From the NCBI GenBank assembly GCA_016192705.1, contig JACPTQ010000038.1, positions 1-36,407 of the forward strand: DNA of 36,407 bases, given 5' to 3'. Source of the stretch: Deltaproteobacteria bacterium (lineage in GTDB: Bacteria; Myxococcota; JACPTQ01). Below the pieces are notes generated by a model. The model saw nothing but the letters and a program-made list of their open reading frames with translations. It ran no database searches and was not told the DNA's origin. The number at the start of each line of letters is the position of its first letter. The stretch's first letter is position 1. Of the stretch, positions 3,406 through 36,067 are shown in pieces. Position numbers and translations under genes: made by a program.

Positions 3406-3430
3406 CGGATCTCGTTTCAAAGTGGTGAGC

Positions 3431-13435: not shown

Positions 13436-13482
13436 GCTGGGCGTTTGAACGTTACATCTCAGCAAAGCCAATACAGCCCCTG

Positions 13483-13564
13483 ATTCCCGGATAAGCGGCG
13501 AATTCTCTGCAGCGCGTCGGGTTGGCAGGAGGCCGCGTCGGCGCGCCGACGTCCTCGGGTCTGA
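13483..13564 (+). repeat. ~80-bp repeat, copy 1
   Basis: Starts ATTCCCGGATAAGCGGCGAA and ends GTCCTCGGGTCTGA. Its first end points towards rplS, 114 bp from the start codon. The middle is the most diverged of the three copies. Confidence 0.6.
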
Positions 13565-13685
13565 ATCCGAACGAGCGATCGAGGCACTGTTTTATGGCGT
13601 GCGAAAACTCGGAGATTCCAAGCGATATTGCGCTGCAGACCCTGCGCAAAGGTGGGGCTGCGGGCTCCGTTCCGTCGCCCTCGCC

Positions 13686-13737
13686 ATTCTGCTCGCACAG
13701 GCAAGCCACCGGCTTGCCTGCTGACCGCTCGCAGAAT
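13686..13737. repeat. Strong nested hairpin in the rplS-kinase gap
   Basis: CAGGCAAGCC (13698-13707) pairs perfectly with GGCTTGCCTG (13711-13720) across a 3-nt loop. An outer pair ATTCTGC (13686-13692) and GCAGAAT (13731-13737) encloses it. No T-run follows on either strand, so it is not a standard intrinsic terminator. Confidence 0.75.
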
Positions 13738-13866
13738 AGGCGCGCCTTTGCGGCTCCCCTGCCAACCCGACGCAACTGCTGGTGAACCGCTTACCGGGTG
13801 GTGATCTGGCGTGGATTTGCCGCTACTGCTGGCCTTGATTCAACTGGCGCAGCCGTTCTTTTGATG

Positions 13867-13947
13867 TCAGCCCCGAGGACGTCCGCGAGCCGAAGCGAGC
13901 CCAGACCCCGCCCGCTCTCTTAATGGTCTTCGCCGCTAACCGGGAAT
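13867..13947 (-). repeat. ~80-bp repeat, copy 2
   Basis: Matches the copy at 36195-36274 in the opposite orientation; the 48-bp inner part (13867-13914) agrees at 43 positions with 36227-36274. The ATTCCCGG end lies 17 bp from the -35 box of the kinase promoter. Confidence 0.75.
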
Positions 13948-14049: not shown

Positions 14050-15846
14050 TTGGCAAAGACCGAACGTCCGGAAGCAACCGTCGTGGATTCGACGTCGCGC
14101 GGCGCGTTCACCGACGTCCGCTATGCGCCCGGAACCGTCGTCGCGGGGCGTTTTCGCGTTGTTGGCTTTTTGGGGCGTGGTGGAATGGGCGTCGTTTACG
14201 AGGCGACGCAGCTCAGCGTCAATCGATCGGTCGCGCTCAAGATCTTGCCGGCCGGAATTTCGAAAATTCCCGACGTCGTTCGTCGCTTTCGCCGGGAGGC
14301 CGAAATCATCGCAAGCCTCGCGCATCCCAACATCGTGACGCTGATCGATTTTGGTCAAACCGAATCGGGCGAGCTTTTTTTGGCGATGGAGCTTGTGCGC
14401 GGGGTCTTGCTCGCGGACCAGATTCAGCGCGGCATTCCGCTTCCGGCCCCCACCGCGATTTCGATCGTGCAGCAGGTTCTCCTCGCGCTCGAGCACGCGC
14501 ACGCAAAAGGGATTATTCACCGCGACTTGAAGCCCTCGAACGTGATGTTGATGGAAACGGGTGACGGCGTCTCGTTCGTCAAGCTCCTAGATTTCGGAAT
14601 CGCTAAAGTTCTCACCGAACCGACGAACGCACCAACCGCCGGCCTCACAGGCGTCGGCGTCGTCGTCGGGACGCCGTTTTACGTGGCGCCGGAGCAAGCC
14701 GCGGGCGGGAAGGCCGACGCGCGCAGCGACATCTATTCGGCCGGACTCCTTCTTTACGAGCTCTTGACGGGGACGCCGCCATTTTTTAGCGAAGACACGC
14801 AGGAAGTTTTGGTGCGCCAGCTTTACGAGGATTTGCCGGCCCTCCCAGTCGAGAGTGCGCGGGGCGTTGCTCCGAGCGTCTTGTCGACACTCCAGCGTTC
14901 GACGAAAAAACGGCCGAGCGACCGGTTCCAAACCGCGCGAGAGATGCGGTTCGCGCTCGTTGGCGAAATGGCGCGCGATACCCGGACGGGGGATCAAGCG
15001 CTCGCGCCTGTCGTTCACGCGAAGGCGGCGCGTACGACGGGTTCGCACGCCGAGACGCCGACGGCGTTTGAAACACGCGCCGTTACGGGACCGCCGCCGC
15101 GCCCACGCTGGAGGCGCGTCTCGACGTTAGGAGCCGCGGCCGTCGCATTGGCTGTTGCTGTCGCCGCCACGGTCTTGGTGTCGGGGCGTGACGAATCGTT
15201 GGAGAAGTCGGATCGCGTGGCCGCAAGCGGTGTTAACGAACCGGCGCGCGCTCCCGCATCCGCACCCGCAGAAGATTTCAACGCCAAGGCGCAAAGGAGC
15301 GGAGACGCTAGGAATGAATCCTCTTCCCTTGGCGCCTCCGCGCCTTTGCGTCAAATTCCCGCGACCGCTCCCGCATCCGCATATGAACATCGTGATCGTG
15401 GTCGTAGTCGTGCTCGTACGCGTGCTCGAGAACGATCTCTTCTCTCCACATCCGCGCCCGCGCCCGCGCCCGTAGCCGCACCCGCAGAAGATTTCAACGC
15501 CAAGGCGCAAAGGAGCGGAGACGCTAAGAATGAGGCCTCTTCCCTTGGCGCCTCCGCGCCTTTGCGTCAAATTCCCGCTCCCGCAATCGCTCCTCGGCCG
15601 CGCCCAGCGCCCGCTCCCACCGAAATCCGTGTCATCGCCTGGTGTAACGACACCGACAAGCCGTGTTGGGCCGCCATCTCTCTGAACGGCGCCGATCAGC
15701 AGACGACCCGCGTTGCGCGATTCAAGGCCAAGGACGGGAAGCACTTGGTGCGTGTCGACAAGGAGGGGTACGAAACCGCTTTTCGCAACGTAACCGTAGC
15801 GGGAGCCTCGACTGAAATCACGGTGCGGCTCACCCGCACGCCATGA
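14050..15846 (+). CDS. PknB-like Ser/Thr protein kinase with transmembrane segment and repeat-rich linker
   Basis: 598 residues from TTG 14050, which has GGGAAGGAAG upstream; GTG 14017 would add eleven residues. The kinase domain is complete: FLGRGGMGVVYEA, VALKIL, IIHRDLKPSNVML, LDFGIAK, APEQAAGGKADARSDIYSAG. It is followed by a helix (TLGAAAVALAVAVAATVLV) that should cross the inner membrane. The outer part starts with a ~165-residue low-complexity linker holding two nearly identical ~34-residue segments (EDFNAKAQRSGDA...ASAPLRQIPA). These are encoded by a palindromic DNA repeat flanked by hexanucleotide arrays. The C-terminus is a short PEGA-like beta domain (AWCNDTDKPCWAAISLNG ... EGYETAFRNVTV). 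The stop overlaps the next start (ATGA), so kinase and PEGA protein are coupled. Such kinases are abundant in Myxococcota and transmit envelope signals. Confidence 0.95.
   Translation: MAKTERPEATVVDSTSRGAFTDVRYAPGTVVAGRFRVVGFLGRGGMGVVYEATQLSVNRSVALKILPAGISKIPDVVRRFRREAEIIASLAHPNIVTLIDFGQTESGELFLAMELVRGVLLADQIQRGIPLPAPTAISIVQQVLLALEHAHAKGIIHRDLKPSNVMLMETGDGVSFVKLLDFGIAKVLTEPTNAPTAGLTGVGVVVGTPFYVAPEQAAGGKADARSDIYSAGLLLYELLTGTPPFFSEDTQEVLVRQLYEDLPALPVESARGVAPSVLSTLQRSTKKRPSDRFQTAREMRFALVGEMARDTRTGDQALAPVVHAKAARTTGSHAETPTAFETRAVTGPPPRPRWRRVSTLGAAAVALAVAVAATVLVSGRDESLEKSDRVAASGVNEPARAPASAPAEDFNAKAQRSGDARNESSSLGASAPLRQIPATAPASAYEHRDRGRSRARTRARERSLLSTSAPAPAPVAAPAEDFNAKAQRSGDAKNEASSLGASAPLRQIPAPAIAPRPRPAPAPTEIRVIAWCNDTDKPCWAAISLNGADQQTTRVARFKAKDGKHLVRVDKEGYETAFRNVTVAGASTEITVRLTRTP
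15260..15361. repeat. Palindromic ~102-bp repeat in kinase linker, copy 1
   Basis: 102 bp that recur at 15476-15577 with three differences, exactly 216 bp apart. The core is an imperfect inverted repeat: ACGCCAAGGCGCAAAGG on the left and CGCGCCTTTGCGTC on the right. It is translated in frame. Confidence 0.9.
15476..15577. repeat. Palindromic ~102-bp repeat in kinase linker, copy 2
   Basis: Second copy of the unit at 15260-15361, in the same reading frame (216 bp is 72 codons). Both copies are entered and left through CCCGCA/CCCGCT hexamers. Confidence 0.9.
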
Positions 15847-18483: not shown

Positions 18484-18499
18484 CGGCCCGGTCATTGCT
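18484..18499 (+). promoter_or_regulatory. Candidate sigma-54 (-24/-12) promoter
   Basis: The sequence reads cGGCcCG-N4-TTGCT against the consensus TGGCACG-N4-TTGCW. The invariant GG and GC are 10 bp apart as required, and only two consensus positions differ. Transcription would start about 60 nt before the ATG at 18571. Confidence 0.5.
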
Positions 18500-18570
18500 C
18501 CTTGATTGAATAGAATTGCGACTGGCGGCGTCTACATGTATGTCGCCAAGGCTCTCTTGAGGAGGGATTC

Positions 18571-21500
18571 ATGATTCGACCCTTTGGTTTTTGGAAAACG
18601 TCGATCGCGCTCATAGCGATTTTTGTCGCCACCACGACTTCGTTCGTTCACGCGCAAACAAAGTCGAAGAAGAAAACTGCGGGTGCTCTCGGCGCGGCGA
18701 CGGCGTCGGCGGCGAGTGCGGCGGGAAAGGGATTCGAGACGTGGCGCGGGAAATTCGCGAAGGGCGACGGCGACTCGAAGCTCGGTGACCTCGTCGCGAT
18801 TTCGAAGATCATGAAGGCGTATAAGGAGAAAGTCGCGGCCGGCGAGGCGATGCCGGGCGAAAAAGAGCCGAACGACCTCGCTGACGTGAAATGTCCGAAC
18901 CCCCAATCGCCGGGGCCCGACTGCGTGCCGCCGCTTGAGGATTATCGCGGGCTCCTTCCAGGGCTTTACGACTATGTCGGTTACATTTGGGAGCGCGTTC
19001 TCGACGACCTCAACAAGCCCGAAGAGAAAAAGCGGCAAATTGTCTCGTGGCTCTTCAACTACGGCTGCCGGCAGATTGCGCGCCACATGCCGGGTTTCGC
19101 GCGCATCGTCAAAGTCACGCGGCGCGCGGGCGCATCGATGTACGGCGATTGGGATGCGAAGGTTGACGATGCGGACCGCGAGAAAATGCTCGGCCGAAAG
19201 GCCGCAAAGGCGGGCGGCGCTGCGGCGAAGACCCCAGCGCCTTACTCGCCACCGCCTAAGGACGAAGTCGTCGAGATCTGCACGGTCACGCACTTGCAGC
19301 TCGAAAAGACGCTTACGAAGGACCTTCGGATCCTCGTCGACGACCGGATCAAGTCGACGGCAAAGGCGACGCTGAAAGATCCCGAAGTCATCGGCGGCGC
19401 GAAACTGACGACGCGCGAGAGCATCGTCGACCTCGCGAAGAAGGCGCCGGGCTGGAAAGACATCAAACTCGCGGACGGCAAAGGGCTCGGCGACGCGCGC
19501 GAAGTCGACCCGAAGACGACGTGCGGATCGAAGAAGGTCGTGAATCCAGGCGAAGCGGGAAATAAGGACGGCCACTTCCCGTCGTGCAAAGACGGCGACG
19601 ATATCGACATGCCAGACTGGGACAAAGTCTGCCGCGAAAAGTTTGGCGATGCCGCGGGAGCGCGTCTCGACGCGGTTTTCAGCTCGACGTCGAAAAAGGT
19701 GAACTGCGCGGTCGCGGCCGACGAAAAGGCGCGCGTCGCGGACGAGCATTTTTCCGATCTCGACTTGAGCGACGCCGACCCGACGAATCCCGCGGCCGTG
19801 ACGCTCAAGGGGGAGACCTACGCGTCGATCTCGAATCGCCTCCTCGGGTTCTTTCGAAAGGGCGGGAAGGCGCGCGTCATGGTCGAGACGAACAAGAAGA
19901 TTGCGAAAAAGGTCAAGCTTCGATCGTCGCCCAAGGGGATGGCGGAGAGCGTCAAGAAGCAGAACGAGTCGGGCGAGAAGGTCGCGTGGCGCGAGGGGTT
20001 TAAGCGGCAGGTCGACCAGTGGACCGACGCGTACGAATACGGGCAGCTCATCAACTACTTGTCGACGGACCCCGAGCTAAAGAAATCGAAAGTCCTCGCG
20101 AGCTATCAGGCGGCCGAGGCGGTCATTTACAACCGGTTCTGGAACGACTGCACGGAGACCTGGGACATCTGCCAAAACCCGAAGCTGAAGATCGAGCAAG
20201 AGGCGTGCGTGAAGTGTGCGTACAAGACACTCCTCGACCACTGCGCAGACGGCGACCGCGACGGCGATACGTGCAAGAGCCCCGTGGGCAAGGTCGTTCC
20301 GGAGATGTATTGGGCGGGAATAGCGCCGAACTGGGCGAGCAAACGCGAACCGGATACGACGAAGATCAAGGATACCGGCGACGCTAAGGTGCCGGAGTTC
20401 TCGGTGAGCCACGCGGGCGGTGCAACGGTGCGCAATGTCTTGGTCGGATGGCTTGGCGTCATGAAGGGGCTGATTGGAGCGCCACCGCTCGTGGGCACCA
20501 AAGGGTTCGCCAACGCCGTCATCCCTGCTGGCGATGCCGGGGATCTCCTCATCGACCGGCGGTTTCTACCGTTTGGATCGCCCGATGCGAAGCAGTGGTA
20601 CTCGCGCGCGGGGATTTTGTTGCTCGACCAGATGCCGCTCACAGCGTGGCAGAAGTGCTACCTCTGGACCGGCAAGATGGAGAAGACGTGCAACCTCTTG
20701 AACGACAAGAAACCGAAAAACGAAAAAAAGATGAAGGACATGCTCAAGGCATGGGCGAAGGACAACGTCCCCGCTAAGAATCCGCTCATCAAGCTCGTGA
20801 GCGAACACAAGACCGTCAAGGACGCGAAGCAGGGAAACTTCATGCTCTCGATGATTGAAGGCGCGGCATTCGGCCGTCGCGAAGACGATTTGAAGTCGGT
20901 TCTCGGAATTTCGAACGACTCCGATAAGGGCGACATGGGCGCGGTCGCCGACAAAATGATGGACCTTGCGGCGCCGATCATCGGGAAGGTGATCGGGATG
21001 CTTCTGAACGCGCCCGGGATGCGCGACACGATGAAAATGCTCGCGAAGGCCGCGGGCTTGACGCCGGAACAGGCGATCGACTGCGAGAGCGCGGAGTATC
21101 GCCAAGAGCAGATCGGGATCGCGGCGAAGTCGAAACTCGACAACAAGCGCGGCTGTTTGACGAAGGTGTTCGCGAAGAACTTCGTGAACGTCCTCGAAGC
21201 GATCATCGTCATGCTCGGCAACAAACTCGTCGATTGGGCGGTCGAAATGCTCGACGTCGCCCTCATGGCGGCAAAGCTCGCGCTCGTCAGCGCGGCCGGG
21301 TCGGTGCCGTTCGCGGGAGGCGTCTTGGCGACGCTCGTCGAAGTCGTGTGGTACGTCCTCTTCAAGTTCGGCGCGCCGGCGCTCTTGAAGGGGCTTGTTG
21401 TGTCGGAGCTGCCCAAGTGGCTCAAAATCAAGGAACTCGCGGGGGCCGACCTCGAAAAGATGATCACCGAGCACCCGATCATCAGTGCAATTTCGGGGAT

Positions 21501-24120
21501 CATTTTGCAGTCGATCGATGCGGCAATTCAATACGGCGACAAGGGGCCGCTCGAAATCGGATTTGGCGTCGCGCTTGAGGCGATCGAGGAGATTCTGATC
21601 GCCACCAAGCAGAATTTCTGGTTGCGCGTTTTCATCGAAGCGAAAAAGGAGCTTGTCACGAAGCCGGCGAAGGAGGGCACGAGCCTCATCGATCAGGTAA
21701 AAGGGTTCGTCGAGGCGATGATCGTCGGGTTCGGGAAGAGCATCGAGATGAAGCTCACGAACCCGCGGGCGCGCGAGATGCTCGCGAAGGCGATCGACAG
21801 CATTAAGGCGCTCGTCGGTACGCTGACGTCGGGCGCGGACGCCTTCACGAAAGACCCGATCAAATTCCTTATGGAGGAGGTTTTGGCGAAGCGAATCCTC
21901 CCAGCGGCGATGCCGATCCTAACTGCGTTCGTCGACCTTCCCAACTGGGCGAAGGATCTGCTCATCGAGGCGGGCGAGATGCTGGCAAAACTCGTCCAGG
22001 GCAAAGGGCAGCTCAAGTTCGCCGACATGAAGGACCAGCTCAAGAGTGTGCTCACCGCGTTGAAGGATGCGCTCCTCGAGAAACTCCCGTCCGGAGACGC
22101 ACTCACCGCAGCGCTGAACACGATGCTCACCGATACGGTCAGTATCATCGATGACGTGAAGGGTTTCGTGTCGAAGTACGTCTGGAAACCGAAAGCGATT
22201 TTACAGAAGCTCGCGTCGATCGTCGGGCCGCTTGTGACGACGTCGGGGCTCATCGAGAAGCTCGGCGGCAGCCTCGCGGCGCCGGAGTTGGCTTTCCTGA
22301 AATCGGCGGTTGGTGAATTCTTCACGTTGCTCGGTGATCCGGCGCGGCTCGGTGCGCTCGTCGCGGCGGCCCCGGCGAAAGTAGAAGAAATCCTCAAGCG
22401 GCTCGTGAAACCCGCGAAGGAGTATGCGCTCGCGCGGATCAAAGCGGCGCTCGCTGGAACGGGGCTCGATGTCGACGCCACATTCAACGAGGTCGTCGCG
22501 CCTGCGGTGACGGCGATCCTCGACGACGGACCGGATGGGCTGTTTGCAAAGGGAAAAGCGTTCGTCGATGGCGCTGCGGCGAAGCTCAAGGACAAGGCGA
22601 TCACAATTGCGACCACGGCCGCGAACGGTCTTCTCGCGGTCGTGAGAAAGCGGATCGAGGACTTCTCGCAATCACCTCTCGTCACGAAACTGACGACCGA
22701 TGGGGTTTTAAAGCTCCTCGTCGACCAGCTCAAGCAGCCGGACGCGCTGAACAAGCTGAAGGGCCTCGACCAAGGAAAACTGATCGCGCTCGCAAAGGGC
22801 GCGCTCGCACCGGTCGTCACCGCGATCGCGGACGCCGTGCCCGAGCCGACGCTCAAGCCCGCCGTGACGAATGTGCTGAACGCCATCGTCGCGTCGTTCG
22901 ACAACCCGTCGCAGCTCGTCACGGACGGCGCGACCGCGTGGGGCAAGCTGACGAAGAAGGTCGAGGCGGATTTGCGCGTGCTGATGAAGGCGGCGATCGC
23001 GAAAGTGACACCGGCCGCGATGGTCGACGAGGTGGTCCGTGCGGTCGACCTCACCACGGCCACGGCCAGCAAGGAGATGGTCATTACGGTCGTGCTTTTC
23101 TTCATCGAGAAGGCGGGCGCACCGATCGGCGTTGTCGCGACGCTTCGAACCGTGGTGCAGGATGTCGTGGGTTACATCGCCGAACCGGCAAAGCTTGACG
23201 CGCTCATTAAAGGCGCAAAGGCCGCTCTCATGACGAAGCTGATGACCACGGCGCGCGCGCTTGTGAACGCGGTTAAGGACCAGCTCTTCCGCGCGACCGA
23301 CCCCTTCCGCCCGGTTGTCGAACAGGCGATCGCGTTCGTGACCGACATTTACGAGCGAGGCCTGCCGACACCAGACCAGATCGGCACGTACGTCAAAGAG
23401 AAACTCGCGGGGCTCGCCGACGAGCTGTTCAAGTTCGCGCGTGCGAAGGTCGCCGAAATCGTGAATCGCGATCTCGCACCGCTTAAGGGCATCGTTCTGG
23501 ATGCGTTCGATTCGATCCACGCGCTTGGGATCGGTATCCTCGGCAAAGTCAAAGCGGCGGGCAAAAACGCGTGGGACGAGTTTGTGGGTGCAGCGACCGA
23601 CGCAAAGGCAATGGTCGCGAAGCTTGTCGAAAAGCTGCTGCCGATCGTCGAGAACGCAATCGCCGGTGCGACGACGTTCAAGCCCGCGGTCGAATTTGTA
23701 AAGGGAATCGCGAAGACGATCGTCGGCATTCTCAAGGACGGCAAGAAACTCGCGTCGGTTTTGAAGGACGAGGCCGCCGCGGCGAAAACGCTGCTTGCCG
23801 ACTTCGCAACGAATGCGGTCGAGACGTTTATTCAATCGGCGTTTGTCGATCGCTTGTCGGGCGCCGGGAAAACGATCGCGACGTTTTTCAAAAACGCGGT
23901 GGTCACAGCGCTCAAGAACATCGACGACTTGAAGGCGTTCATTGAGAAGTTTGCGTCGTCAAAGGCCGAAGACTTAAAGACGCTCGCGAAGGGGCTCGTC
24001 ACGGGACTCGTGGGTGGGCTTGTCGCTGAGCTCAAGAAGTCCGCCGCGACGCTCGGCGCCATCGTTGAAAAGGCGGTGTCGATTGCAACCAGTAACTTCG
24101 ATCAAATTCTCGCAAAGTAA
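18571..24120 (+). CDS. Giant secreted helical protein (1849 residues), family unknown
   Basis: ATG with GAGGAGGGA 4-6 nt upstream. The signal peptide is clear: KTSIALIAIFVATTTSFVHA then QTKSKKK. The first ~860 residues contain all the cysteines, including a cluster at ~523-568 (NDCTETWDICQ, ACVKCAYK, DHCADGDRDGDTC). After residue ~861 there is no cysteine at all. Residues ~890-940 form a hydrophobic hairpin (VALMAAKLALVSAAG, then VLATLVEVVWYVLFKFGAPALL) that could enter a membrane. From ~950 to the end the protein is a long succession of amphipathic Ala/Lys/Val/Leu helices broken by Gly/Pro turns, such as AKLVEKLLPIVENAIAG and FVKGIAKTIVGILKDGKKL, without exact repeats. I recognise no domain. 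It is followed at 13 bp by another exported protein with a similar ribosome binding site, so the two form a unit. A lipid- or pore-associated role can only be guessed. Confidence 0.85.
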   Translation: MIRPFGFWKTSIALIAIFVATTTSFVHAQTKSKKKTAGALGAATASAASAAGKGFETWRGKFAKGDGDSKLGDLVAISKIMKAYKEKVAAGEAMPGEKEPNDLADVKCPNPQSPGPDCVPPLEDYRGLLPGLYDYVGYIWERVLDDLNKPEEKKRQIVSWLFNYGCRQIARHMPGFARIVKVTRRAGASMYGDWDAKVDDADREKMLGRKAAKAGGAAAKTPAPYSPPPKDEVVEICTVTHLQLEKTLTKDLRILVDDRIKSTAKATLKDPEVIGGAKLTTRESIVDLAKKAPGWKDIKLADGKGLGDAREVDPKTTCGSKKVVNPGEAGNKDGHFPSCKDGDDIDMPDWDKVCREKFGDAAGARLDAVFSSTSKKVNCAVAADEKARVADEHFSDLDLSDADPTNPAAVTLKGETYASISNRLLGFFRKGGKARVMVETNKKIAKKVKLRSSPKGMAESVKKQNESGEKVAWREGFKRQVDQWTDAYEYGQLINYLSTDPELKKSKVLASYQAAEAVIYNRFWNDCTETWDICQNPKLKIEQEACVKCAYKTLLDHCADGDRDGDTCKSPVGKVVPEMYWAGIAPNWASKREPDTTKIKDTGDAKVPEFSVSHAGGATVRNVLVGWLGVMKGLIGAPPLVGTKGFANAVIPAGDAGDLLIDRRFLPFGSPDAKQWYSRAGILLLDQMPLTAWQKCYLWTGKMEKTCNLLNDKKPKNEKKMKDMLKAWAKDNVPAKNPLIKLVSEHKTVKDAKQGNFMLSMIEGAAFGRREDDLKSVLGISNDSDKGDMGAVADKMMDLAAPIIGKVIGMLLNAPGMRDTMKMLAKAAGLTPEQAIDCESAEYRQEQIGIAAKSKLDNKRGCLTKVFAKNFVNVLEAIIVMLGNKLVDWAVEMLDVALMAAKLALVSAAGSVPFAGGVLATLVEVVWYVLFKFGAPALLKGLVVSELPKWLKIKELAGADLEKMITEHPIISAISGIILQSIDAAIQYGDKGPLEIGFGVALEAIEEILIATKQNFWLRVFIEAKKELVTKPAKEGTSLIDQVKGFVEAMIVGFGKSIEMKLTNPRAREMLAKAIDSIKALVGTLTSGADAFTKDPIKFLMEEVLAKRILPAAMPILTAFVDLPNWAKDLLIEAGEMLAKLVQGKGQLKFADMKDQLKSVLTALKDALLEKLPSGDALTAALNTMLTDTVSIIDDVKGFVSKYVWKPKAILQKLASIVGPLVTTSGLIEKLGGSLAAPELAFLKSAVGEFFTLLGDPARLGALVAAAPAKVEEILKRLVKPAKEYALARIKAALAGTGLDVDATFNEVVAPAVTAILDDGPDGLFAKGKAFVDGAAAKLKDKAITIATTAANGLLAVVRKRIEDFSQSPLVTKLTTDGVLKLLVDQLKQPDALNKLKGLDQGKLIALAKGALAPVVTAIADAVPEPTLKPAVTNVLNAIVASFDNPSQLVTDGATAWGKLTKKVEADLRVLMKAAIAKVTPAAMVDEVVRAVDLTTATASKEMVITVVLFFIEKAGAPIGVVATLRTVVQDVVGYIAEPAKLDALIKGAKAALMTKLMTTARALVNAVKDQLFRATDPFRPVVEQAIAFVTDIYERGLPTPDQIGTYVKEKLAGLADELFKFARAKVAEIVNRDLAPLKGIVLDAFDSIHALGIGILGKVKAAGKNAWDEFVGAATDAKAMVAKLVEKLLPIVENAIAGATTFKPAVEFVKGIAKTIVGILKDGKKLASVLKDEAAAAKTLLADFATNAVETFIQSAFVDRLSGAGKTIATFFKNAVVTALKNIDDLKAFIEKFASSKAEDLKTLAKGLVTGLVGGLVAELKKSAATLGAIVEKAVSIATSNFDQILAK

Positions 24121-24133
24121 AAGAGGAGGCCCC

Positions 24134-25837
24134 ATGTTCGCAAAACGCACATCCCGCTTGAGTTTCCTAGTCGCCGTCGCCACGGTGCCGCTTTCGACCG
24201 CCCAGGCGGGCGGGTTCACCGAACGACTTGGCGACGTTTGGAAACTCGCCAAGAAAGTCGTCGACGTCGTGGGCGACTACCCGACGCTCCGCGCGACCGT
24301 GCGAACGAAACGCGCGCAACCTTGTCCCATCGACACCGGGTTTGATCCCGCGGCCGCCCTCACCGACGCCGGAAAGGCCGCCCTCCTCGCTAAAGCCGGC
24401 GCCTACGAAGACGCCCTCGCCGCGCGCCACTTCGTGCAAAACATTGTCGTGAGCCGCGCTGAAATACATCCCGACACAAAGGCCGTTCAGCTTTACCCCT
24501 CCTCCATCGGCGACGCGTCGTACCACTCGGGGCAACTCCTCGCCGCGCGCGCGTTCCGATACGGCGTGACGGGCAAACCGACCGATCTCGACCTCGTCCA
24601 AAACTCGCTCATCGGCGTTTACAACCTCCTCACGATCGCAAGCGCGCCGAGCGGCAAAATCACAAATCCCCGGGCGGGCGATGGCAAAATGGCGGCGGTG
24701 CCTGGACTTCCCGTGCGCGCGTTCGTCGAAGAGGGCAACCCGCTCTTCGCCGGCGCGACCGACCTCGATGTCAAGAACCCCGACGTTTATCGCTACACCG
24801 GGACGCTCAAGGGCGCACCGACGTCGAGGCGGTACCTCGTCAAAGCGAACGTCAGCCGCGACCAAATCAATGGCCTCCTCTTTGGAATCGCCGCCGCGCA
24901 CGAAGTCCTCAACCCGAAAAAGGAGCTCGTCGATGTTCGACGCGATGTGGCGCGCGCGGTCACGACGTTCATTCGCAACTATGTGAAGCGGGGCTACCGG
25001 CTTTTTGACCTCGACAGTCGCCTGCTCATGGAGGGGCCGCCCGCCGACCTCATTCCAACACTCTCCTGGTTAAAAACCGCGGCGATCGTCACGAACGAAT
25101 CGGACATCAAGAAAGCTTACGACAAACTCGTGAAAGATTATTTCGGCGGCTCGACCATCGAGAAGCTCTTTAAACAAGCGATATTCAAAGGGCTACAGGA
25201 CCTCGTGCAATCGCTCGTCGGCGATCACATTGAACTGTTGCAAATGGTGCTTCGCGACTTCAATTACAACCTGCTGGTGCTGCCCCTTTACGCGCTCCTT
25301 CGGTTCGAAAAGAACGCAGAAACCCGCGACGTCTACAAGCACTACCTCAAGCACACGATCAAGCCCCTCGTCGGAAACCTCCGCATCCCCTTCTTTGACG
25401 CGGTTTATCTCCTCGGCACCGGCGAAAAAGATAACGCGCGCGTCCGCCGAGCCGCCGGCGTGCTCCGCCAATTCCGAAACCCGCCCTTCCCGTTCGGCAA
25501 CCCCGCGCCCGGCGCAACGACACCCGTCACCGACTTCAGCACGCGCAAAGATCTCCGCGACCCGCTTTTCGATCACTTGTCTGAAGTCTGGGAGACGCAC
25601 CTCAAAAAAGATTTCCCTGGTGAGAACAACCCGATTCGCTACGGTGGCGGCATCTGGCCGCTCGGCCCAGGACTCGCACCGCGCGACAACAACATTGAGC
25701 GCGCGAACCCGTACCGTGTGACCGGCGAAAAAGCGAGCGGCTCAATGACCGTCGACGGCAAAAAGACGCTCCTCGAGTATCCCGGCGAAGACTATCTCCT
25801 CAACTACTGGATCGCCCGCTACCACAAGTTCCTCTAG
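24134..25837 (+). CDS. Secreted helical protein, possible alpha/alpha-toroid fold
   Basis: 567 residues. ATG 24134 is preceded by GAGGAGG; the open frame extends 40 codons upstream into the preceding gene but those are not needed. Signal peptide: SRLSFLVAVATVPLSTAQA then GGF. The mature part is mostly helical. Segments such as DASYHSGQLLAARAFRYGVTG and VSRDQINGLLFGIAAAHEVL resemble the paired-helix repeats and the S-R-D-Q element I associate with alpha/alpha-toroid proteins of Myxococcota; this is memory-based and low certainty. There is a single Cys early in the mature protein (QPCPID). The C-terminal third holds NPIRYGGGIWPLGPGL and ends LLNYWIARYHKFL. It directly follows the 1849-residue protein and probably works with it outside the cytoplasm. 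Catalytic residues cannot be assigned. Confidence 0.82.
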   Translation: MFAKRTSRLSFLVAVATVPLSTAQAGGFTERLGDVWKLAKKVVDVVGDYPTLRATVRTKRAQPCPIDTGFDPAAALTDAGKAALLAKAGAYEDALAARHFVQNIVVSRAEIHPDTKAVQLYPSSIGDASYHSGQLLAARAFRYGVTGKPTDLDLVQNSLIGVYNLLTIASAPSGKITNPRAGDGKMAAVPGLPVRAFVEEGNPLFAGATDLDVKNPDVYRYTGTLKGAPTSRRYLVKANVSRDQINGLLFGIAAAHEVLNPKKELVDVRRDVARAVTTFIRNYVKRGYRLFDLDSRLLMEGPPADLIPTLSWLKTAAIVTNESDIKKAYDKLVKDYFGGSTIEKLFKQAIFKGLQDLVQSLVGDHIELLQMVLRDFNYNLLVLPLYALLRFEKNAETRDVYKHYLKHTIKPLVGNLRIPFFDAVYLLGTGEKDNARVRRAAGVLRQFRNPPFPFGNPAPGATTPVTDFSTRKDLRDPLFDHLSEVWETHLKKDFPGENNPIRYGGGIWPLGPGLAPRDNNIERANPYRVTGEKASGSMTVDGKKTLLEYPGEDYLLNYWIARYHKFL

Positions 25838-25886
25838 CTTTCGTTCGTGGTAAGGTTCCTTCTCGCTTTCACAGAGGAGGTTCCGC

Positions 25887-26675
25887 ATGTCCGACGCCGA
25901 AAAAACGATTCTCACCGAGGCACGCAGCCACGTGCTCCACATCGGGCTAAACCGCGCGGCAAAGCGAAACGCGTTCGACCTCGCGATGCTCGAGCAGCTC
26001 GCTGGCGCCCTCACTGACCTCGAAAAAAACGACGACCTGCGCGCGGGCGTCATCTACGCCGTCGGCGAGCACTTCACGGCCGGGCTCGACCTCGCGAACG
26101 TGGTGCCGCGCTTTTTGTCGGGCGAACCACTTGTACCCGAGGGGCAGGTCGACCCATGGGCCGTGTTTGGTAGGCGGCGCACGAAGCCGCTCGTCGTCGC
26201 AGCGCGTGGACGATGCTTGACGCTCGGCATCGAGCTGATTTTGGCGGCCGACATCGCCATCGCCGCGAGCGACACGCAGTTCGGGCAGATCGAAATTCGC
26301 CGCGGCATCTTTCCGTTTGGCGGTGGGACCTGGCGCTTCCCGGCGCGCGTCGGCTGGGGCAACGCGATGCGCTGGCTTTTGACCGGCGACACCTTCGACG
26401 CGGCCGAGGCCCACCGCATCGGGCTCGTGCAAGAAGTCGTCGCGCCTGGTGCCGAACACGAACGCGCGACCACGATTGCCGAAACCATCGCCCGCCAAGC
26501 GCCGCTCGGCGTTTACGCGACGCTCGCCTCCGCATGGCAGGCCGAACGCGAGGGGAACGCCGCGGCCGCACAGGGGCTCATTCCAACCCTCACGCGGCTC
26601 ACGCAATCCGAAGACGCGCAAGAGGGCTTCGCCTCGTTCATCGAGCGTCGCGACGCTGTCTTTAAGGGGCGCTAA
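25887..26675 (+). CDS. Enoyl-CoA hydratase/isomerase (crotonase) family protein
   Basis: 262 residues; ATG preceded by AGAGGAGG. Crotonase landmarks: LNRAAKRNAF near the N-terminus, HFTAGLDLA (first oxyanion-hole strand, 62-70), RGRCLTLGIELILAADIAIA (second oxyanion strand with E116) and FGQIEIRRGIFPFGGGT (E136). Both positions that hold catalytic Glu in enoyl-CoA hydratases are occupied, so hydratase activity on an acyl-CoA is plausible, although the superfamily has many reactions and the exact one cannot be told. It is cytoplasmic. The gene stands alone between exported unknowns, with 9 bp to the convergent 804-residue protein gene. No other fatty-acid gene is near. Confidence 0.93.
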   Translation: MSDAEKTILTEARSHVLHIGLNRAAKRNAFDLAMLEQLAGALTDLEKNDDLRAGVIYAVGEHFTAGLDLANVVPRFLSGEPLVPEGQVDPWAVFGRRRTKPLVVAARGRCLTLGIELILAADIAIAASDTQFGQIEIRRGIFPFGGGTWRFPARVGWGNAMRWLLTGDTFDAAEAHRIGLVQEVVAPGAEHERATTIAETIARQAPLGVYATLASAWQAEREGNAAAAQGLIPTLTRLTQSEDAQEGFASFIERRDAVFKGR

Positions 26676-26684
26676 GCCCGCCGC

Positions 26685-29099
26685 CTATTCCGTTTCGGGT
26701 CGGCGATCGGGGAATCCTGGCGGACGTACGGGTGCAGGCTTAGGCGCAGGGTTGGCGGGAGCTTGCGGAACAATCCGCGCGCGCCATTTGCCGCCACCCC
26801 ACGTGGTGTAATCGATAACGTCGCTCGTGTGGCCGTCGGCCGCCCCGCGCTTGACATGGCGAACCTGCGCCCCCGCCAGATGCGCCGTCCACTCCCCACC
26901 ATCCCACGTCACGTAGTTCATGATGACATCGGGGTGCCCGCTCGGCGCCCCGCGGCGCGTGTGAAGAAAACGCCCACCTTCGAGTCGCGCAGTCCATTCG
27001 CCGCCTCCCCACGTGACGTAATTGAGATTGACGTCCTGGTGCGCCCGCGCGAAGTCGCCATCCGGCGCGTGCAGAAACGCACCCGCTTGGGGTATCTCGC
27101 CAGGCGGCGGTAAGGCGATCGGCTCAATTTTGCGATCCACGAGTTTCGCGGCAAACCGCGTTCCGTCCCACGACAAATAGCGGATGACATCGGTGTCCCG
27201 CGACGGAAAAACGCTCCCATCCGCGGGCGTCTGGAAAAACCCCGCGCCTTTCAAACTCGTCGCGTATGCCGGCGAACTGAAGAGGTGCAGTTGGCAGTTT
27301 GGGCCGGCAAAGCCGCCCCCGTGCGGGCAGGCGCCACCCACCTGCGCATAGTAAACACCAGGCCACTGCGGATTCGTATCGACCCAGTAATTCACGCCTT
27401 CACGGAGGACCGGTCGTGGCGGCGAAAACTTGATGACACCGCAATCGCCTCCCGCCGTGAAATTCCCGAGTGCACAGCCCGCGGTCCCCGGGCTAAAATA
27501 AACGCCTGGCAGTTTCCTACCCCCGGCGATATGATCCGGAGACCCGCGATCCCCGACGGCATCCACCCAGTAGGTCGTCCCTGGGTAGACAGTGGGATTA
27601 TCAGGGTCCCACGACCGATGGCTTATTCGATCGTCCGAATGCACGCGTGCGAAATCCCCAAGTGGCGCGTGAAGAAATCCCGAGCTACCGCCCAATCGCG
27701 CGGTCCACTTCGATCCATCCGACGCTAAGTAATTGATGTGGGCGTCCGGGGTCGCCTGCGAGAAATCGCCGTTACGTGCCACCAAAAAGAACAGTCGATC
27801 TGGCTCCACGAGCGCGGGTTGCGGCGCGGGATCGCTCTCCTTGAGCGCGGCAAACGTGGTGGCTGCATCCTCGGCTTGCAGCTGAAAGAACGCCGCGCCA
27901 CCGCCCTGGACCCAAACTTCCTGGTCAAACACCGGGCGCAGGTATTTTTTGGCGACATAGTCGAAAGCCTCGTCGACCGCGATTTTCGAGGCGAATGCGA
28001 TGAAGACTCCAGCACCCGCGGCCGCAACCGCTACACTCGCTCCGGGCCCCAGGGCCGAAACGGCAGCTGTTGTGAATACCGCGAGCTTGAGCGATAAGGC
28101 CGTCGTCACGGGCGTGAGGCCGATTTTAAGTGTGTTCCACGTTGCGTCGAACGCCAACGCTTTCGCGCCATCCATGAAGGAGCGGATGTAGCAAGCGCGA
28201 AACTCCGCATCTGGTTTCTTGTTGCAATCAAAAAAAGCGTACGGCCAAAGGAACGCCCAATCGACGGCAAGCTCGGCCATGGTGAGATACGCCTGGACCT
28301 TCATGGCCTTTAGAATCCTGGCGCCGATCGGGACCTCATTCGCCGCAGCAAACCGCGCCTTGAGGCTCTGCGCCGGCTTAAGGCCTCGCGCATAGATGTT
28401 TCCGCGGGTGTAAACGCCTTTCATCATCTCCTTGGTCTTTTGGTACTTCTCTATGATTTTGGGGAGCGCGATCACCGCTGCGACGGCATACTTCCCTTTT
28501 TCGCCGATATTCCGCGCGATGTTGTCCTCTTTGAAATCGAAGGCGTCTACAATACCGGCCGGGAGAAAGCGGGCCGCGGTCTGCACCGCGGGGGCTGGAA
28601 TCCAATCGGCTAGCCATTCAGAACCCTCGATCGTGCGCGCCGCAATCGTGTAGAGAGGCGTTAGGGCCCGCGCCATGAATTCGCACAGCCCCCATAAGAA
28701 CTTTTCGTACGCGAGAAAGAGCGCCTCCGAAAGGGCGGTGTAAACTTCGCCGGCGATCGTTCGCACCTCGTCGAAGGCCTGTCCCGCGAGATTCTTCGCC
28801 GCGCCCGCGAGATCGGACGGCGCGCTCTTGATCCACTCAATCGATTTGCTCCCCTCGCGAACGACCACATTCCCCACCGTCCGTGCGGCGGTCGATACGG
28901 CCTCCACCGCTTTCCCGGCCTCGGCCTTAAGCTTATCGTAGGCATCCTTCGCGCAGTTCCATGGGTCGCTCCAACCGCACGCCGACGCAGTCCGGCCAAA
29001 ACCGATCGGTAGGTCGAAAGTCGATGAACCATCGAAAGAAACAAGCAGAACCGCAAAAAAAAGACCTATTCGCGTGGTCTTACGGGTCAATCTACTCAT
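26685..29099 (-). CDS. Secreted protein with helical N-half and six-copy beta repeat C-half
   Basis: 804 residues; ATG with GGAGGA 6 nt upstream. An export signal is likely (RIGLFFAVLLVSF, then a stretch to TASA-CGW at 40-41). Residues ~45-390 are helical, with a hydrophobic segment at ~335-370 rich in Ala/Gly/Val. The C-half carries six ~34-residue beta repeats at about 437-470, 474-498, 619-653, 674-708, 710-742 and 745-777. The pattern is FLHAPDGDFARxHxD, then NYVTWxGGEWTARL. Between copies 2 and 3 sit two Cys-containing modules that start YWVD and continue PGVY(F/Y) (509-560, 571-610). The tail is Pro-rich. I do not recognise the repeat; a propeller or lectin-like fold is possible. The gene lies opposite the two other large exported proteins, with only the crotonase between. 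Confidence 0.85.
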   Translation of the reverse strand: MSRLTRKTTRIGLFFAVLLVSFDGSSTFDLPIGFGRTASACGWSDPWNCAKDAYDKLKAEAGKAVEAVSTAARTVGNVVVREGSKSIEWIKSAPSDLAGAAKNLAGQAFDEVRTIAGEVYTALSEALFLAYEKFLWGLCEFMARALTPLYTIAARTIEGSEWLADWIPAPAVQTAARFLPAGIVDAFDFKEDNIARNIGEKGKYAVAAVIALPKIIEKYQKTKEMMKGVYTRGNIYARGLKPAQSLKARFAAANEVPIGARILKAMKVQAYLTMAELAVDWAFLWPYAFFDCNKKPDAEFRACYIRSFMDGAKALAFDATWNTLKIGLTPVTTALSLKLAVFTTAAVSALGPGASVAVAAAGAGVFIAFASKIAVDEAFDYVAKKYLRPVFDQEVWVQGGGAAFFQLQAEDAATTFAALKESDPAPQPALVEPDRLFFLVARNGDFSQATPDAHINYLASDGSKWTARLGGSSGFLHAPLGDFARVHSDDRISHRSWDPDNPTVYPGTTYWVDAVGDRGSPDHIAGGRKLPGVYFSPGTAGCALGNFTAGGDCGVIKFSPPRPVLREGVNYWVDTNPQWPGVYYAQVGGACPHGGGFAGPNCQLHLFSSPAYATSLKGAGFFQTPADGSVFPSRDTDVIRYLSWDGTRFAAKLVDRKIEPIALPPPGEIPQAGAFLHAPDGDFARAHQDVNLNYVTWGGGEWTARLEGGRFLHTRRGAPSGHPDVIMNYVTWDGGEWTAHLAGAQVRHVKRGAADGHTSDVIDYTTWGGGKWRARIVPQAPANPAPKPAPVRPPGFPDRRPETE

Positions 29100-32351: not shown

Positions 32352-34724
32352 TTACGGACAGGTGAGCGCCGTCGAGGTCTTCCCAACCTTGAGCGTGTAG
32401 TTGTTCGACACTTGCCCGAGCACGCCGTACACGCGAACGTAGTAGGTCGAATTGCCCGTGACGTACGCCTGCGTGAGGATCTCGTTGTTCACAAGCCCCG
32501 CCGACCGCTTTAGGAGCGTTCCACTGTCATCGTAGATATCGACATCGATATCGCCGTTCGCATGCGTAAAGCAGGCCGCGACCTGCAGCGTTTGCGACGA
32601 CGTCAGCGACACCGCATACCAGTCCTCGTCCGCAAGGCACATCGTCCGCGCCGTCCCCGACGTCGACGCCATCGCCTCAGCCGTCCCAAACGTGTTGTTC
32701 GCGCCACTCGCCTCGCCCGAATCGGCCGTACACCGCGCCACAACCCGAACCGGCACGAAGATCGTGTTGTTGTTTTCATTCGCCTCGGTGACCGAGCCCG
32801 CCGGGTCGACCACGATCGCGATGTAGTAATCACCCGACAGCGTCGACGACGGAATCGTCAGCTTGTCGCGCCGCGTGACCGCCGTGATTCCGTTCACAGC
32901 CGGAAGCGCCACGCTCGCCGCCAAAACCACGTCGCCCGCGTCCACCGTCTGATCCGCCGTGAGCACGAATTTCACCGCCGACGCCCCCGACGCCTTCGCG
33001 CCGAAGTTTTCAACCGTCCAGTCGACGATCGCGTCTTCGCCCGCCGTCACGGGTCGCGGCTGCGCCGTCGCATCGCGCGGCAACAAATCGATGACCTCGC
33101 TCCCCGTCACCGTCAACGACACCGTCTGACCGCTCGCGCACGACGTCCCCGAGCTGTTCGAAAGCTTCACGTAGTGGACGCCCGTCTCGGTGATGCTCGG
33201 GTTTGTCATGACGCCGCCCGTCGTTCCGCCCGCGTACACGTATTCGTAATCGACGTACGACGTGCCGTTCGGCTTATAGAGATAGAGATAATACGAGCAA
33301 CTCCCCGGCGTCGACGTGAGGCTGATTTGCTGTCCCGCCTTAAGCGGCCCGATCTTGAACCAATCCTCGTTCGACGCGCACATCGTCACGGAGTACGTTC
33401 CGTCACCAAGCGTCTTCGCCGCACCAAACGTATCGTTCGGCTCAAACGCGTCCTCGACGCACGCCGGTCCAACCTTAAACGACTGCGCCGCAATAAGAAG
33501 GTTGTTGTTCTCGTTGTACTCGGCAATCGCGCTCGCGTTATCGAGCACAACCCCGATGTAATACGTCCCCTGCGCGGTCCCCGATGGGATCGTCACGCTC
33601 GCCGTCGTATCAACCGCACCACCGCCCGCGGCCAGCGCCGAAATCGTTCCCGTCCCAATTTCGATCTTCGTTGTGAAAGCCGACGTAAGCGATAAGTACA
33701 CCTTGTACCCAAAACTCGCTCCCGTCGCGACCGTTCCGACATTGAGCGTCTTAAACGTAACCGTCGTTGCCTCGCCCGCAAGCCTGTTCGTTGCACCAAG
33801 CGCTGTCACGGCGCCAACGAGGTCCTTGCCCACGTCGCCCAACCCAACGTTGACCGACAGCGAATACGCATTCGCCTTGGTCTTGTCCCAATCGTCGTGG
33901 AGCACGCGCACAAAATAATCGCCGCCGCTCGCAACTGGCGTCAGCACGACCTTCTCTAAGTCGCTCCAGCCGTTCGACGACCCGACCGGCGACGATCCGC
34001 TCGGCCCCCAGATTTCAAGGTTGAGATCGCCCTCCGAATCCTTGAACCCAATCGACGCCGCCAAGAACGACCCGGGCGTCAGCGCCACCTTGAACCAGTC
34101 TTCGTTCGTCTTGCAGCTGTACAGACTGCTAAACGTATTGCCGGTGAGCGCGATCGCCTGCGACTTGAAGTCGTTCGGCTCCGTCGCATCTTCGCTCGCG
34201 CAGCCGCCGCCCCCATAAACCTGAACCGGCGTCGTCCCAAAGATTCGGTTGTTCGTCTCGTTCGTCTCTTGAACGGCGCTCGCCGAATCGACCTTCACGA
34301 TAATGAAGTATTCACCGTTATTCGTGGCCGTCGGCACCGTTCCCGCTTGCGAAATCTGGTGCGTCGCGCCCCCCGCGAGACTCGGCACATCGACCGTCGC
34401 AACAATCGTGTCCGACGCGTCATCGAGCGTGTCGGCTGAAAAGAGCAGCTGCACCTTAAACGCCCCGGCCGCGTCGGTTCCGTTGTTCTTCACGCTTGCC
34501 GTAACGGTCACTTGATCGCCCGCCTTCACGAGCGACGGCGACACCCCGACCTGAATCGGAGCCAAATCGATCGACGCCGTCGTCCGCACGGTCAGCTTCG
34601 CAACCGAGGTCGAGATGTTGTTCGTCTCGATCAACTCCGTAACAGCATTCGTCGCATCGGCCACAACCCCAATGTAGTAATCGCCGCCCGCCGTGTTCGA
34701 GGGAATCGTCGCCGTAATCGACGT
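32352..34724 (-). CDS. CARDB/PPC repeat lipoprotein, C-terminal part (separated by frameshift)
   Basis: The frame continues the CARDB array of the next entry after a one-base shift at about 34724-34726. From the shift: ITATIPSNTAGGDYYIGVV completes a CARDB domain, then another full CARDB, a PPC-like domain (TEPNDFKSQAIAL ... CKTNEDWFKVAL), CARDB, PPC (FEPNDTFGAAKTL ... ASNEDWFKIG), CARDB and a final PPC-like domain (ADEDWYAVSL) ending TLKVGKTSTALTCP. Four CARDB ends here read E(T/Y/A)NENNN or ETNETNN. CARDB and PPC are Ig-like adhesion or bacterial surface domains; this would be the outer part of a ~1240-residue surface lipoprotein. An ATG at 34664 could in principle start a separate product, but no ribosome binding site or signal peptide is there. 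Confidence 0.85.
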   Translation of the reverse strand, partial: TSITATIPSNTAGGDYYIGVVADATNAVTELIETNNISTSVAKLTVRTTASIDLAPIQVGVSPSLVKAGDQVTVTASVKNNGTDAAGAFKVQLLFSADTLDDASDTIVATVDVPSLAGGATHQISQAGTVPTATNNGEYFIIVKVDSASAVQETNETNNRIFGTTPVQVYGGGGCASEDATEPNDFKSQAIALTGNTFSSLYSCKTNEDWFKVALTPGSFLAASIGFKDSEGDLNLEIWGPSGSSPVGSSNGWSDLEKVVLTPVASGGDYFVRVLHDDWDKTKANAYSLSVNVGLGDVGKDLVGAVTALGATNRLAGEATTVTFKTLNVGTVATGASFGYKVYLSLTSAFTTKIEIGTGTISALAAGGGAVDTTASVTIPSGTAQGTYYIGVVLDNASAIAEYNENNNLLIAAQSFKVGPACVEDAFEPNDTFGAAKTLGDGTYSVTMCASNEDWFKIGPLKAGQQISLTSTPGSCSYYLYLYKPNGTSYVDYEYVYAGGTTGGVMTNPSITETGVHYVKLSNSSGTSCASGQTVSLTVTGSEVIDLLPRDATAQPRPVTAGEDAIVDWTVENFGAKASGASAVKFVLTADQTVDAGDVVLAASVALPAVNGITAVTRRDKLTIPSSTLSGDYYIAIVVDPAGSVTEANENNNTIFVPVRVVARCTADSGEASGANNTFGTAEAMASTSGTARTMCLADEDWYAVSLTSSQTLQVAACFTHANGDIDVDIYDDSGTLLKRSAGLVNNEILTQAYVTGNSTYYVRVYGVLGQVSNNYTLKVGKTSTALTCP

Positions 34725-36067
34725 GACGCAATCGAATCGGTGCCGACCGACGGGCTCAGCGCCGTCGCCGACGCCGTCGACGACAACACGAGCCGGTTCG
34801 TAAACGCGCCAGCCGCCTGGTCACCGCGGTTTTGCAGTTTGTACGACACCGTCACCGTCCCACCCGGCATGACCGACGACGGCGAAAACGTCACGGTCGA
34901 CACAACAAGCTCGGTTCCCGGCACCGTCCCCGTGTAAACACGAAGCGCCGCCTCACCCCGGTTGTTCGACTCGTTCGTCTCGGCAACTGTGTTCGCAAGG
35001 TCAGCGACCGCAAACACGGTGTAGTTCCCCGCGACCGCACTCTGTGGAACAACGACATCCGCAACCTTCTGCGCCGTCTGCCCCGCCGGAAGCGACGTGA
35101 TGCTCTCCGTCGCGACCACCGTGTCGGTCGGCTCAAAGCTCGAATCGGGCGACAAAAACAGCTTCACATGAAACGGCGCCGCCGCGGCTACGCCTTCGTT
35201 TTTCACCGCATAGCTGACGCGAATCGAATCGCCCGGGAACGCCGCCGCGCGGTCGAGCGACACCGACGGAATCGTCAAGTCGACGTTCGCCGCGACGCCG
35301 CCCACGCGCACCGCCTGAATCCGAATAAGGCCATTGTTCCCCTCGTCGATTTCGCCAATCGTGCCATCGGGGTCAACCACCGCGCTCACGAAATAATCGC
35401 CCGTCGCGCGCGACGACGGAACCTGCATCGACGCGGCCTGCGCCGGCGCCTGAATTTCTTCCCCGGCCGGAACCGCCGGCACCTGAACCGTGCCAATCGG
35501 CGGCAGCGACCGGTCGATCGACTGCGACGTCGACAGATACACGGCGACCGTCGTCGCCTCCGACGCCTCAGTCCCATCGTTCGCGACCTTCACTTGCACC
35601 GCGAGGTTTTCGCCCGCTTGCACGACATCGCTCCCCACAGTGATCTCGGTCACGCGCAAATCGACGCGCGAGTCACGCGTGCGAATCACAATCGGCAGGC
35701 TCTCGGCCGCCGCGCCCGTCGAATCGGTCACGCGCACCTTCGCGGTGAATTCTCCCGCGCGCGTGTAGGTGTGTTCGGGGTTCTGCTTGTTGTTCTCCTC
35801 GGTTGCAACCGAGTCATCGCCAAAATTCCAAGCGAACAAAACGCCGCCCGACGCACCAAGCACATTCGCGTTGAACTTCACTTTGAGCGCAACGGCGCCC
35901 GCAACTTTGTCCGCGGTCGTCTCAACGCGGAAACCACTCGTCGGTGGAGGCGTTCCGTTTCCATCACCGTCAGGCGTGCCGCTGCCGCTGCTGCACGCCG
36001 CGCCCACCAACATCAACGAAACGAAACCCAATCGCGAAACTGTTCGTAGCCCCCGTCGCGTCATCAT
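34631..36067 (-). CDS. CARDB/PPC repeat lipoprotein, N-terminal part (frameshifted)
   Basis: ATG 36067 is preceded by GGAGGAG 4-5 nt upstream; the frame extends ~110 codons further without a convincing start. Signal peptide and lipobox: SRLGFVSLMLVGAAC, then SSGSGTPDGDGNG. A PKD-like domain follows (FNANVLGASGGVLFAWNFGDD ... YTRAGEFTAKVRVTDS), then CARDB domains ending DEGNN and NESNN. A third CARDB runs into the frameshift: after SVGTDSIAS the frame turns into RRLRRRFPRTRRAA, unlike the repeat. Restoring one base (for example GCGTCGACGTCG for GCGTCACGTCG) joins it to the C-terminal part. Whole product ~1240 residues, probably outer-membrane anchored and surface exposed. Sequencing error or a real mutation cannot be told apart here. 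Confidence 0.85.
   Translation of the reverse strand: MMTRRGLRTVSRLGFVSLMLVGAACSSGSGTPDGDGNGTPPPTSGFRVETTADKVAGAVALKVKFNANVLGASGGVLFAWNFGDDSVATEENNKQNPEHTYTRAGEFTAKVRVTDSTGAAAESLPIVIRTRDSRVDLRVTEITVGSDVVQAGENLAVQVKVANDGTEASEATTVAVYLSTSQSIDRSLPPIGTVQVPAVPAGEEIQAPAQAASMQVPSSRATGDYFVSAVVDPDGTIGEIDEGNNGLIRIQAVRVGGVAANVDLTIPSVSLDRAAAFPGDSIRVSYAVKNEGVAAAAPFHVKLFLSPDSSFEPTDTVVATESITSLPAGQTAQKVADVVVPQSAVAGNYTVFAVADLANTVAETNESNNRGEAALRVYTGTVPGTELVVSTVTFSPSSVMPGGTVTVSYKLQNRGDQAAGAFTNRLVLSSTASATALSPSVGTDSIASRRLRRRFPRTRRAAITTLGLWPMRRMLLRS

What the first reader, a model, noticed from the sequence alone, without database searches (positions are those of the whole stretch)
18484..29099. Three large exported proteins of unknown family in one block: candidate undescribed surface system
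A 1849-residue helical protein, a 567-residue helical protein and (opposite strand) an 804-residue protein with a helical half and beta repeats all carry signal peptides, strong GGAGG-type ribosome binding sites and no recognisable domains. The first two are 13 bp apart and share a promoter region with a good -24/-12 sequence. In the giant protein cysteines are confined to the first ~860 residues, while the ~990-residue remainder is Cys-free amphipathic helix. This looks like a secreted or surface machine or matrix that is not in known catalogues. Function is inference.
Basis: partly seen in the sequence, partly recalled or inferred. Interest (0 to 1): 0.62.

Follow-up and report, generated by a model that had tools for sequence, protein, structure and literature searches.

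The report
Expanded family of giant exported proteins
The giant 1,849-residue protein is one of sixteen huge exported proteins in this one genome that share a greasy membrane-type segment, carry interchangeable sticky domains and match nothing catalogued, so it looks like a new lineage-specific arsenal or surface coat whose job is not yet known.

Summary
The three ORFs are real, but they are not one three-gene block. An enoyl-CoA hydratase gene lies between the second and third, and the claimed -24/-12 promoter is no better than chance.

The 1849-aa protein is the important part. It belongs to an uncatalogued family with eight members in this genome: a conserved Cys-rich half, a hydrophobic segment built around [SA]xPFxGG, and a Cys-free amphipathic-helix tail. 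The hydrophobic segment recurs in 21 ORFs of the genome: 8 type I giants, 7 type II giants (one broken), 1 type III giant and 5 small helical proteins.

N-terminal modules are swapped between members (discoidin, PAN, DUF7910 and others). The 804-aa protein shares a beta module with one giant paralog. Neighbours include a membrane dipeptidase, Het-C/VWA7-like proteins and a recurrent partner family. The 567-aa protein belongs to a phylum-wide family of unknown function; two of its three genes here sit beside giants.

No giant core was found in 194 other same-phylum genomes, about 85,000 genomes (pattern scan), viral contigs, plasmids, Pfam, NCBIfam or the PDB.

Best explanation (0.4): secreted, surface-targeted, membrane-active proteins used with envelope-degrading enzymes. 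Main rival: a structural coat or matrix. Function is inference.

The parts
18571..24120 (+). Type I giant exported protein, 1849 aa
   Evidence: ORF; seven full-length paralogs in the same genome; no Pfam or NCBIfam match
18571..18654 (+). Predicted signal peptide, residues 1-28 (cleavage after VHA)
   Evidence: By inspection of the sequence; hydrophobic stretch at 10-28
18793..20850 (+). Conserved Cys-rich region, residues 75-760, with many invariant Cys
   Evidence: Alignments A1, A2 and A9
21142..21525 (+). Hydrophobic module, residues 858-985, with AGSVPFAGGVLA; shared by 21 ORFs of the genome
   Evidence: Profile searches; hydropathy peak at 890-935
21793..24117 (+). Cys-free amphipathic-helix tail, residues 1075-1849, with degenerate internal repeats
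   Evidence: Helical moment z 8.1; segment HMMs match the tail of type III giant L071 and other parts of the same tails
24134..25837 (+). 567-aa exported protein, divergent member of a phylum-wide family of unknown function
   Evidence: Profile A8 found in 28 of 193 genomes; no Pfam, NCBIfam or PDB family
25887..26675 (+). Enoyl-CoA hydratase/isomerase gene lying inside the claimed block; probably unrelated
   Evidence: PF00378 E 3e-40
26685..29099 (-). 804-aa exported protein: helical N-half, beta repeats in the C-half
   Evidence: ORF; no paralog of the N-half in the genome
27273..27590 (-). Cys-containing beta repeat, residues 504-609, shared with the head of the C42 giant (L038)
   Evidence: BLASTP E 2e-14, 39% identity
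26898..27089 (-). DUF4751 region, residues 671-734
   Evidence: PF15942, 27.1 bits against a cut-off of 25

Best explanation
The 1849-aa protein is a type I member of a new, lineage-expanded superfamily of giant exported proteins. Shown: paralogy, domain swapping, the shared hydrophobic segment, the amphipathic tail and the genomic neighbours. Inferred: each giant is exported by its signal peptide; its N-terminal modules and Cys-rich half dock it on a surface (a glycan or the envelope of a target cell, or the producer's own); the hydrophobic hairpin and amphipathic tail then insert into or coat the membrane. Co-encoded exported proteins, often envelope-acting enzymes, work alongside. The likely purpose is attack on other cells' envelopes (predation or competition). 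The 567-aa protein is an accessory partner, and the 804-aa protein is a separate secreted protein aimed at the same kind of ligand through a shared module.
For: 8 type I giants and 21 module-bearing ORFs in one genome. The module peaks at transmembrane-like hydropathy (maximum KD19 of at least 1.6 in 15 of 16 copies examined) around a Pro-Gly-Gly turn. Tail helical moment z 8.1. Swapped binding-type heads: F5/8C, PAN and DUF7910 above cut-off, SUEL lectin and TIG below cut-off. The 804 protein and the C34 partner protein share heads with giants. Neighbours include an M19 dipeptidase and two VWA7_N/Het-C-like proteins above cut-off, and an M15/VanY-like protein below cut-off. The recurrent A11 partner family lies directly beside giants in 3 of 8 cases, p about 7e-5 on a rough model.
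Against: No direct evidence of membrane insertion, secretion or toxicity. No immunity-like gene was identified. Partner enzymes differ from locus to locus and several giants have none. Single-sequence AlphaFold models are unreliable (pLDDT 42 and 36). Hydropathy near 1.6-2.3 also fits a buried helix in a soluble bundle. No solved or annotated relative supports the function.
Confidence: 0.4

Rival explanations
1. Structural surface coat or extracellular matrix. The giants are long helical proteins that self-associate through amphipathic helices, are anchored by their lectin-like and discoidin modules, and build a cell coat, cyst coat or cohesive matrix. Paralogs serve different stages or substrates.
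For: Very large size, repetitive helical tail, disulfide-rich heads, many co-existing paralogs and binding modules.
Against: Membrane-like hydrophobic module conserved in all types. Neighbours that look like peptidases and lipase-like proteins are not expected of a coat.
Confidence: 0.33
2. Apolipoprotein-like carriers: secreted amphipathic-helix proteins that bind and move lipids or other hydrophobic cargo outside the cell.
For: Ala/Val/Leu-rich amphipathic tail with balanced charge; a weak ApoLp-III match (E 0.49).
Against: The ApoLp-III match is far below cut-off (11 against 36.3 bits). Receptor-type heads and wall peptidases nearby are not explained.
Confidence: 0.12
3. The three window genes form one dedicated three-protein surface machine.
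For: Adjacent; all with export signals; the first two are 13 bp apart.
Against: An intervening metabolic gene and convergent orientation. The other type I loci lack both the 567 family and any full-length 804-like gene. In relatives the 567 family lives without the giant.
Confidence: 0.05

Closest known systems
Hydrophobic-hairpin channel toxins: colicin Ia type, and the LXG toxin TspA (PMC7456083)
   Same: A secreted protein with a hydrophobic hairpin-like segment proposed to engage a membrane. TspA depolarises membranes when targeted to the E. coli periplasm (PMC7456083).
   Different: No sequence match to any such family. The giants have large Cys-rich heads, signal peptides, swapped binding modules and no identified immunity gene.
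Modular secreted adhesins and lectin-domain proteins
   Same: Binding modules (F5/8C, PAN, SUEL-like, DUF7910) fused to a large conserved body.
   Different: The body is not a repeat-Ig, RTX or beta-helix body. It is a unique Cys-rich half plus helical tail with no Pfam match; no RTX or LPXTG motif.
The phylum-wide 567-aa protein family (profile A8)
   Same: The window's 567-aa protein belongs to it: profile hits over nearly the full length in 28 of 193 genomes.
   Different: In relatives it is multicopy and occurs without a type I giant. The window copy is divergent (22-26% identity to the relatives' proteins).
Apolipophorin/apolipoprotein amphipathic-helix proteins
   Same: A long amphipathic-helix tail rich in Ala, Val and Leu.
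   Different: The Pfam match is well below cut-off; heads and hydrophobic hairpin have no counterpart.

Membership tests
New type I giant family (this report) | Conserved Cys-rich region with invariant Cys | tested here: met
   Alignment with seven paralogs
New type I giant family (this report) | Hydrophobic module with [SA]xPFxGG | tested here: met
   Residues 858-985; the 1849-aa sequence is in the training set
567-aa family (profile A8) | Near full-length profile match of the window's 567-aa protein | tested here: met
   492.6 bits over positions 42-533 of 537, with the window copy in the training set; without a profile, relatives matched at E 2e-7 to 3e-4
DUF4751 (PF15942) | Score above Pfam's gathering cut-off for the 804-aa protein | tested here: met
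   27.1 bits against 25, residues 671-734
RTX toxins/adhesins | Glycine-rich GGxGxD repeats; PF02382 above cut-off | tested here: not met
   No GGxGx[DN] in any of the three proteins; PF02382 in the 804-aa protein 14.5 bits against 26.8
Apolipophorin III (PF07464) | Score above cut-off | tested here: not met
   11 bits against 36.3
Colicin-type or LXG channel toxins | Recognisable toxin-family domain | tested here: not met
   No such Pfam or NCBIfam match in the giant
Colicin-type or LXG channel toxins | Membrane depolarisation or channel formation | not testable with these tools
   Needs a bench assay
Co-inherited three-gene surface system | Co-occurrence of the three genes in relatives or at paralogous loci | tested here: not met

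The most novel reading that the evidence does not exclude
A previously undescribed class of predation or competition weapon: a repertoire of about 16 giant secreted proteins in one lineage. Each combines a swappable target-binding head with a conserved membrane-inserting hairpin, most with long amphipathic helices, and they are deployed with envelope-degrading partner enzymes.
Probability: 0.3. Interest if true: 0.85.

Novelty: categorically new. Interest (0 to 1): 0.6.

Why it matters
One genome without held close relatives spends roughly 80 kb on giant exported proteins whose cores match no curated family, built on one conserved hydrophobic module with interchangeable heads. If they are membrane-active they would be a new weapon class; if structural, a new type of bacterial coat. 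Either way the conserved module and the recurrent partner genes make function testable. The result also shows that whole superfamilies can hide in under-sampled lineages. The 'categorically new' label applies to the protein superfamily; its function may prove to be of a known kind.

Tried and rejected
(1) One three-gene machine: rejected (intervening gene; no co-occurrence). (2) -24/-12 promoter: no better than chance. (3) RTX, apolipoprotein, DnaJ, integrase and TPR-like Pfam hits: all below cut-off. (4) PDB profile searches for the giant core, tail, type II family and 567 family: nothing, designed helical repeats, or probable chance hits. (5) AlphaFold on window sequences alone: pLDDT 42 and 36, so no fold search was run. 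Paralog alignments were not submitted because the predictor's stated rule lists other sources of loci. (6) The hydrophobic module in the 804 protein: not detected (E 2-4); the A11 partner family does not match it either. (7) The giant beside the second 567-family gene (C42) is not detectably homologous to type I (hhalign probability 1%), so that pairing is by character, not family. (8) A 20-residue type II hit in a Bdellovibrio MAG was not followed up and is treated as probable chance. (9) Literature searches on giant or expanded secreted families in Myxococcota gave nothing relevant.

Full report
OBSERVATION. The three ORFs exist where stated. The giant and the 567-aa gene are 13 bp apart, and all three genes have good Shine-Dalgarno sequences. 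The giant's 18 Cys all lie at or before residue 862. Its tail (1075-1849) is 46% AVLIM, Cys-free and strongly amphipathic (mean helical moment z 8.1 against shuffled sequence). Three parts of the claim fail. An enoyl-CoA hydratase gene lies between the 567 and 804 genes. The 804-aa protein has a recognisable DUF4751 region. The -24/-12 sequence has two mismatches and is of a kind expected by chance.

THE GIANT BELONGS TO A LARGE PARALOGOUS FAMILY. In its own 5.2-Mb, 88-contig genome the 1849-aa protein has seven full-length relatives of about 1750-2130 aa, on contigs C70, C43, C82, C58, C30, C42 and C86. They share a Cys-rich region with many invariant Cys, a hydrophobic module of about 120 aa (window copy AAGSVPFAGGVLA) and an amphipathic-helical tail of variable length. 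The C42, C30 and C86 tails are shorter or diverged. Conservation at roughly 30-40% identity rules out spurious ORFs.

THE HYDROPHOBIC MODULE DEFINES A WIDER SUPERFAMILY. A profile of the module finds 22 places in 21 ORFs of this genome. These are the 8 type I giants; 7 type II giants (C17, C19, C32, C34, C24, C12 and a gene on C79 that appears split in two), with a different Cys-rich head and the module near the C-terminus; 1 type III giant (C45, 1818 aa), whose tail is homologous to the type I tail (segment HMMs down to E 3e-17); and 5 small exported helical proteins. Type I and type II share only this module (hhalign 94%, E 1e-7). The module reaches transmembrane-like hydropathy in nearly all copies examined. 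By inspection of N-termini, nearly all the giants start with a signal peptide; L033 (C82) lacks a clear one.

SWAPPED HEADS AND SHARED MODULES. Heads differ between paralogs. C30 has an F5/8C discoidin domain, C42 a PAN domain plus the 804-type repeat, C82 DUF7910 and C86 a TIG-like region (sub-threshold); the type II giant on C19 has a SUEL-lectin-like region (sub-threshold). The 804 protein's repeat (504-609) matches the C42 giant head at E 2e-14. A second beta module ('GGGWWQWYRVT') is shared by the C70 and C34 giant heads and by the C34 partner protein (E 5e-15 and 6e-47). Giants and companions therefore draw on a common set of binding-type modules. This is the strongest link between the 804 protein and the giants.

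NEIGHBOURS. Adjacent exported genes include an M19 dipeptidase (C70; above cut-off), two VWA7_N/Het-C-like proteins (C30; above cut-off for VWA7_N), an M15/VanY-like protein (C45; below cut-off) and a recurrent partner family, A11. A11 has 8 genes, all in this genome among 193 searched, and 3 lie directly beside giants; with about 4300 genes and 23 giant-like loci assumed, p is about 7e-5. The 567-aa protein belongs to a phylum-wide multicopy family of unknown function (28 of 193 genomes). Two of its three members here sit in a gene string with a giant exported helical protein (p about 0.001 on the same rough model), but the C42 giant concerned is not detectably homologous to type I.

TAXONOMIC SPREAD. 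No type I relative was found outside this genome among 195 phylum genomes searched with the core profile, by a pattern-plus-tblastn scan of about 85,000 GTDB genomes, in IMG/VR or in plasmids. Type II gave one probable chance hit. The module alone gave five marginal hits in other phylum genomes (E about 0.001-0.006). Two cautions apply. The GTDB scan needs exact conserved peptides. And the relatives search returned no genome closer than the same phylum, so 'lineage-specific' may simply mean that the lineage is unsampled. The phylum was not named by any tool; genome sizes of the relatives suggest Myxococcota (inference).

MECHANISM. Shown: export signals by inspection, domain architecture, the hydrophobic segment, amphipathicity, paralogy and gene neighbourhood. 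Inferred: heads dock to a surface, the hairpin and tail engage membrane, and partner enzymes open the envelope. The likely purpose is attack on other cells (0.4). A structural coat (0.33) and a lipid carrier (0.12) remain open. AlphaFold on single sequences gave only unreliable, mainly helical models for the giant's second half and the 804 N-half, and no solved structure is related by sequence to the giant or the 567 family.

VERDICT. The real finding is genome-wide: a new superfamily of giant exported proteins with interchangeable heads.

Noticed in passing
window 13482-13943 and 36197-36407 (contig end): A dispersed repeat of several hundred bp, 75-93% identical, recurs near many of the giant loci (L037, L050, L070, L071, L075, L077); the window's contig ends inside one copy, so it probably breaks the assembly.
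   Followed up: partly
window 15241-15368 and 15457-15584; L038:12316-12448; L049:15251-15552: A 128-bp direct repeat inside the Ser/Thr kinase gene also occurs at about 76-82% identity in the Ala/Pro/Thr-rich linker of the C42 giant and in L049, possibly a shared low-complexity linker.
   Followed up: no
window 32352-34664 and 34631-36394 (-): Two overlapping minus-strand ORFs, both with CARDB domains (one also PKD, the other PPC), may be one gene broken by a frameshift, or two related genes.
   Followed up: no
window 3531-7315 (+): Two adjacent T2SSE/PilT-type ATPase genes, the first with an N-terminal HEAT-repeat region, 45% identical in the ATPase part.
   Followed up: no
window 2536-3436; L034:17726-18634: A 0.9-kb unit with two small convergent related ORFs (112 and 148 aa) is duplicated near the C58 giant at 76% DNA identity.
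   Followed up: no
L036:9149-17199 (-): A further giant exported helical protein of up to about 1710 aa without detectable type I homology, followed by a 227-aa caspase-like protein (sub-threshold) and a 752-aa 567-family protein.
   Followed up: partly
L035:11458-15553 (+): The C30 giant is followed by a 564-aa exported protein and two related VWA7_N/Het-C-like exported proteins (298 and 325 aa).
   Followed up: partly
L075:7191-12503 (-): The type II giant on C79 appears as two ORFs (967 and 767 aa), consistent with a frameshift or assembly error; DNA similarity to L050 continues across the gap.
   Followed up: no
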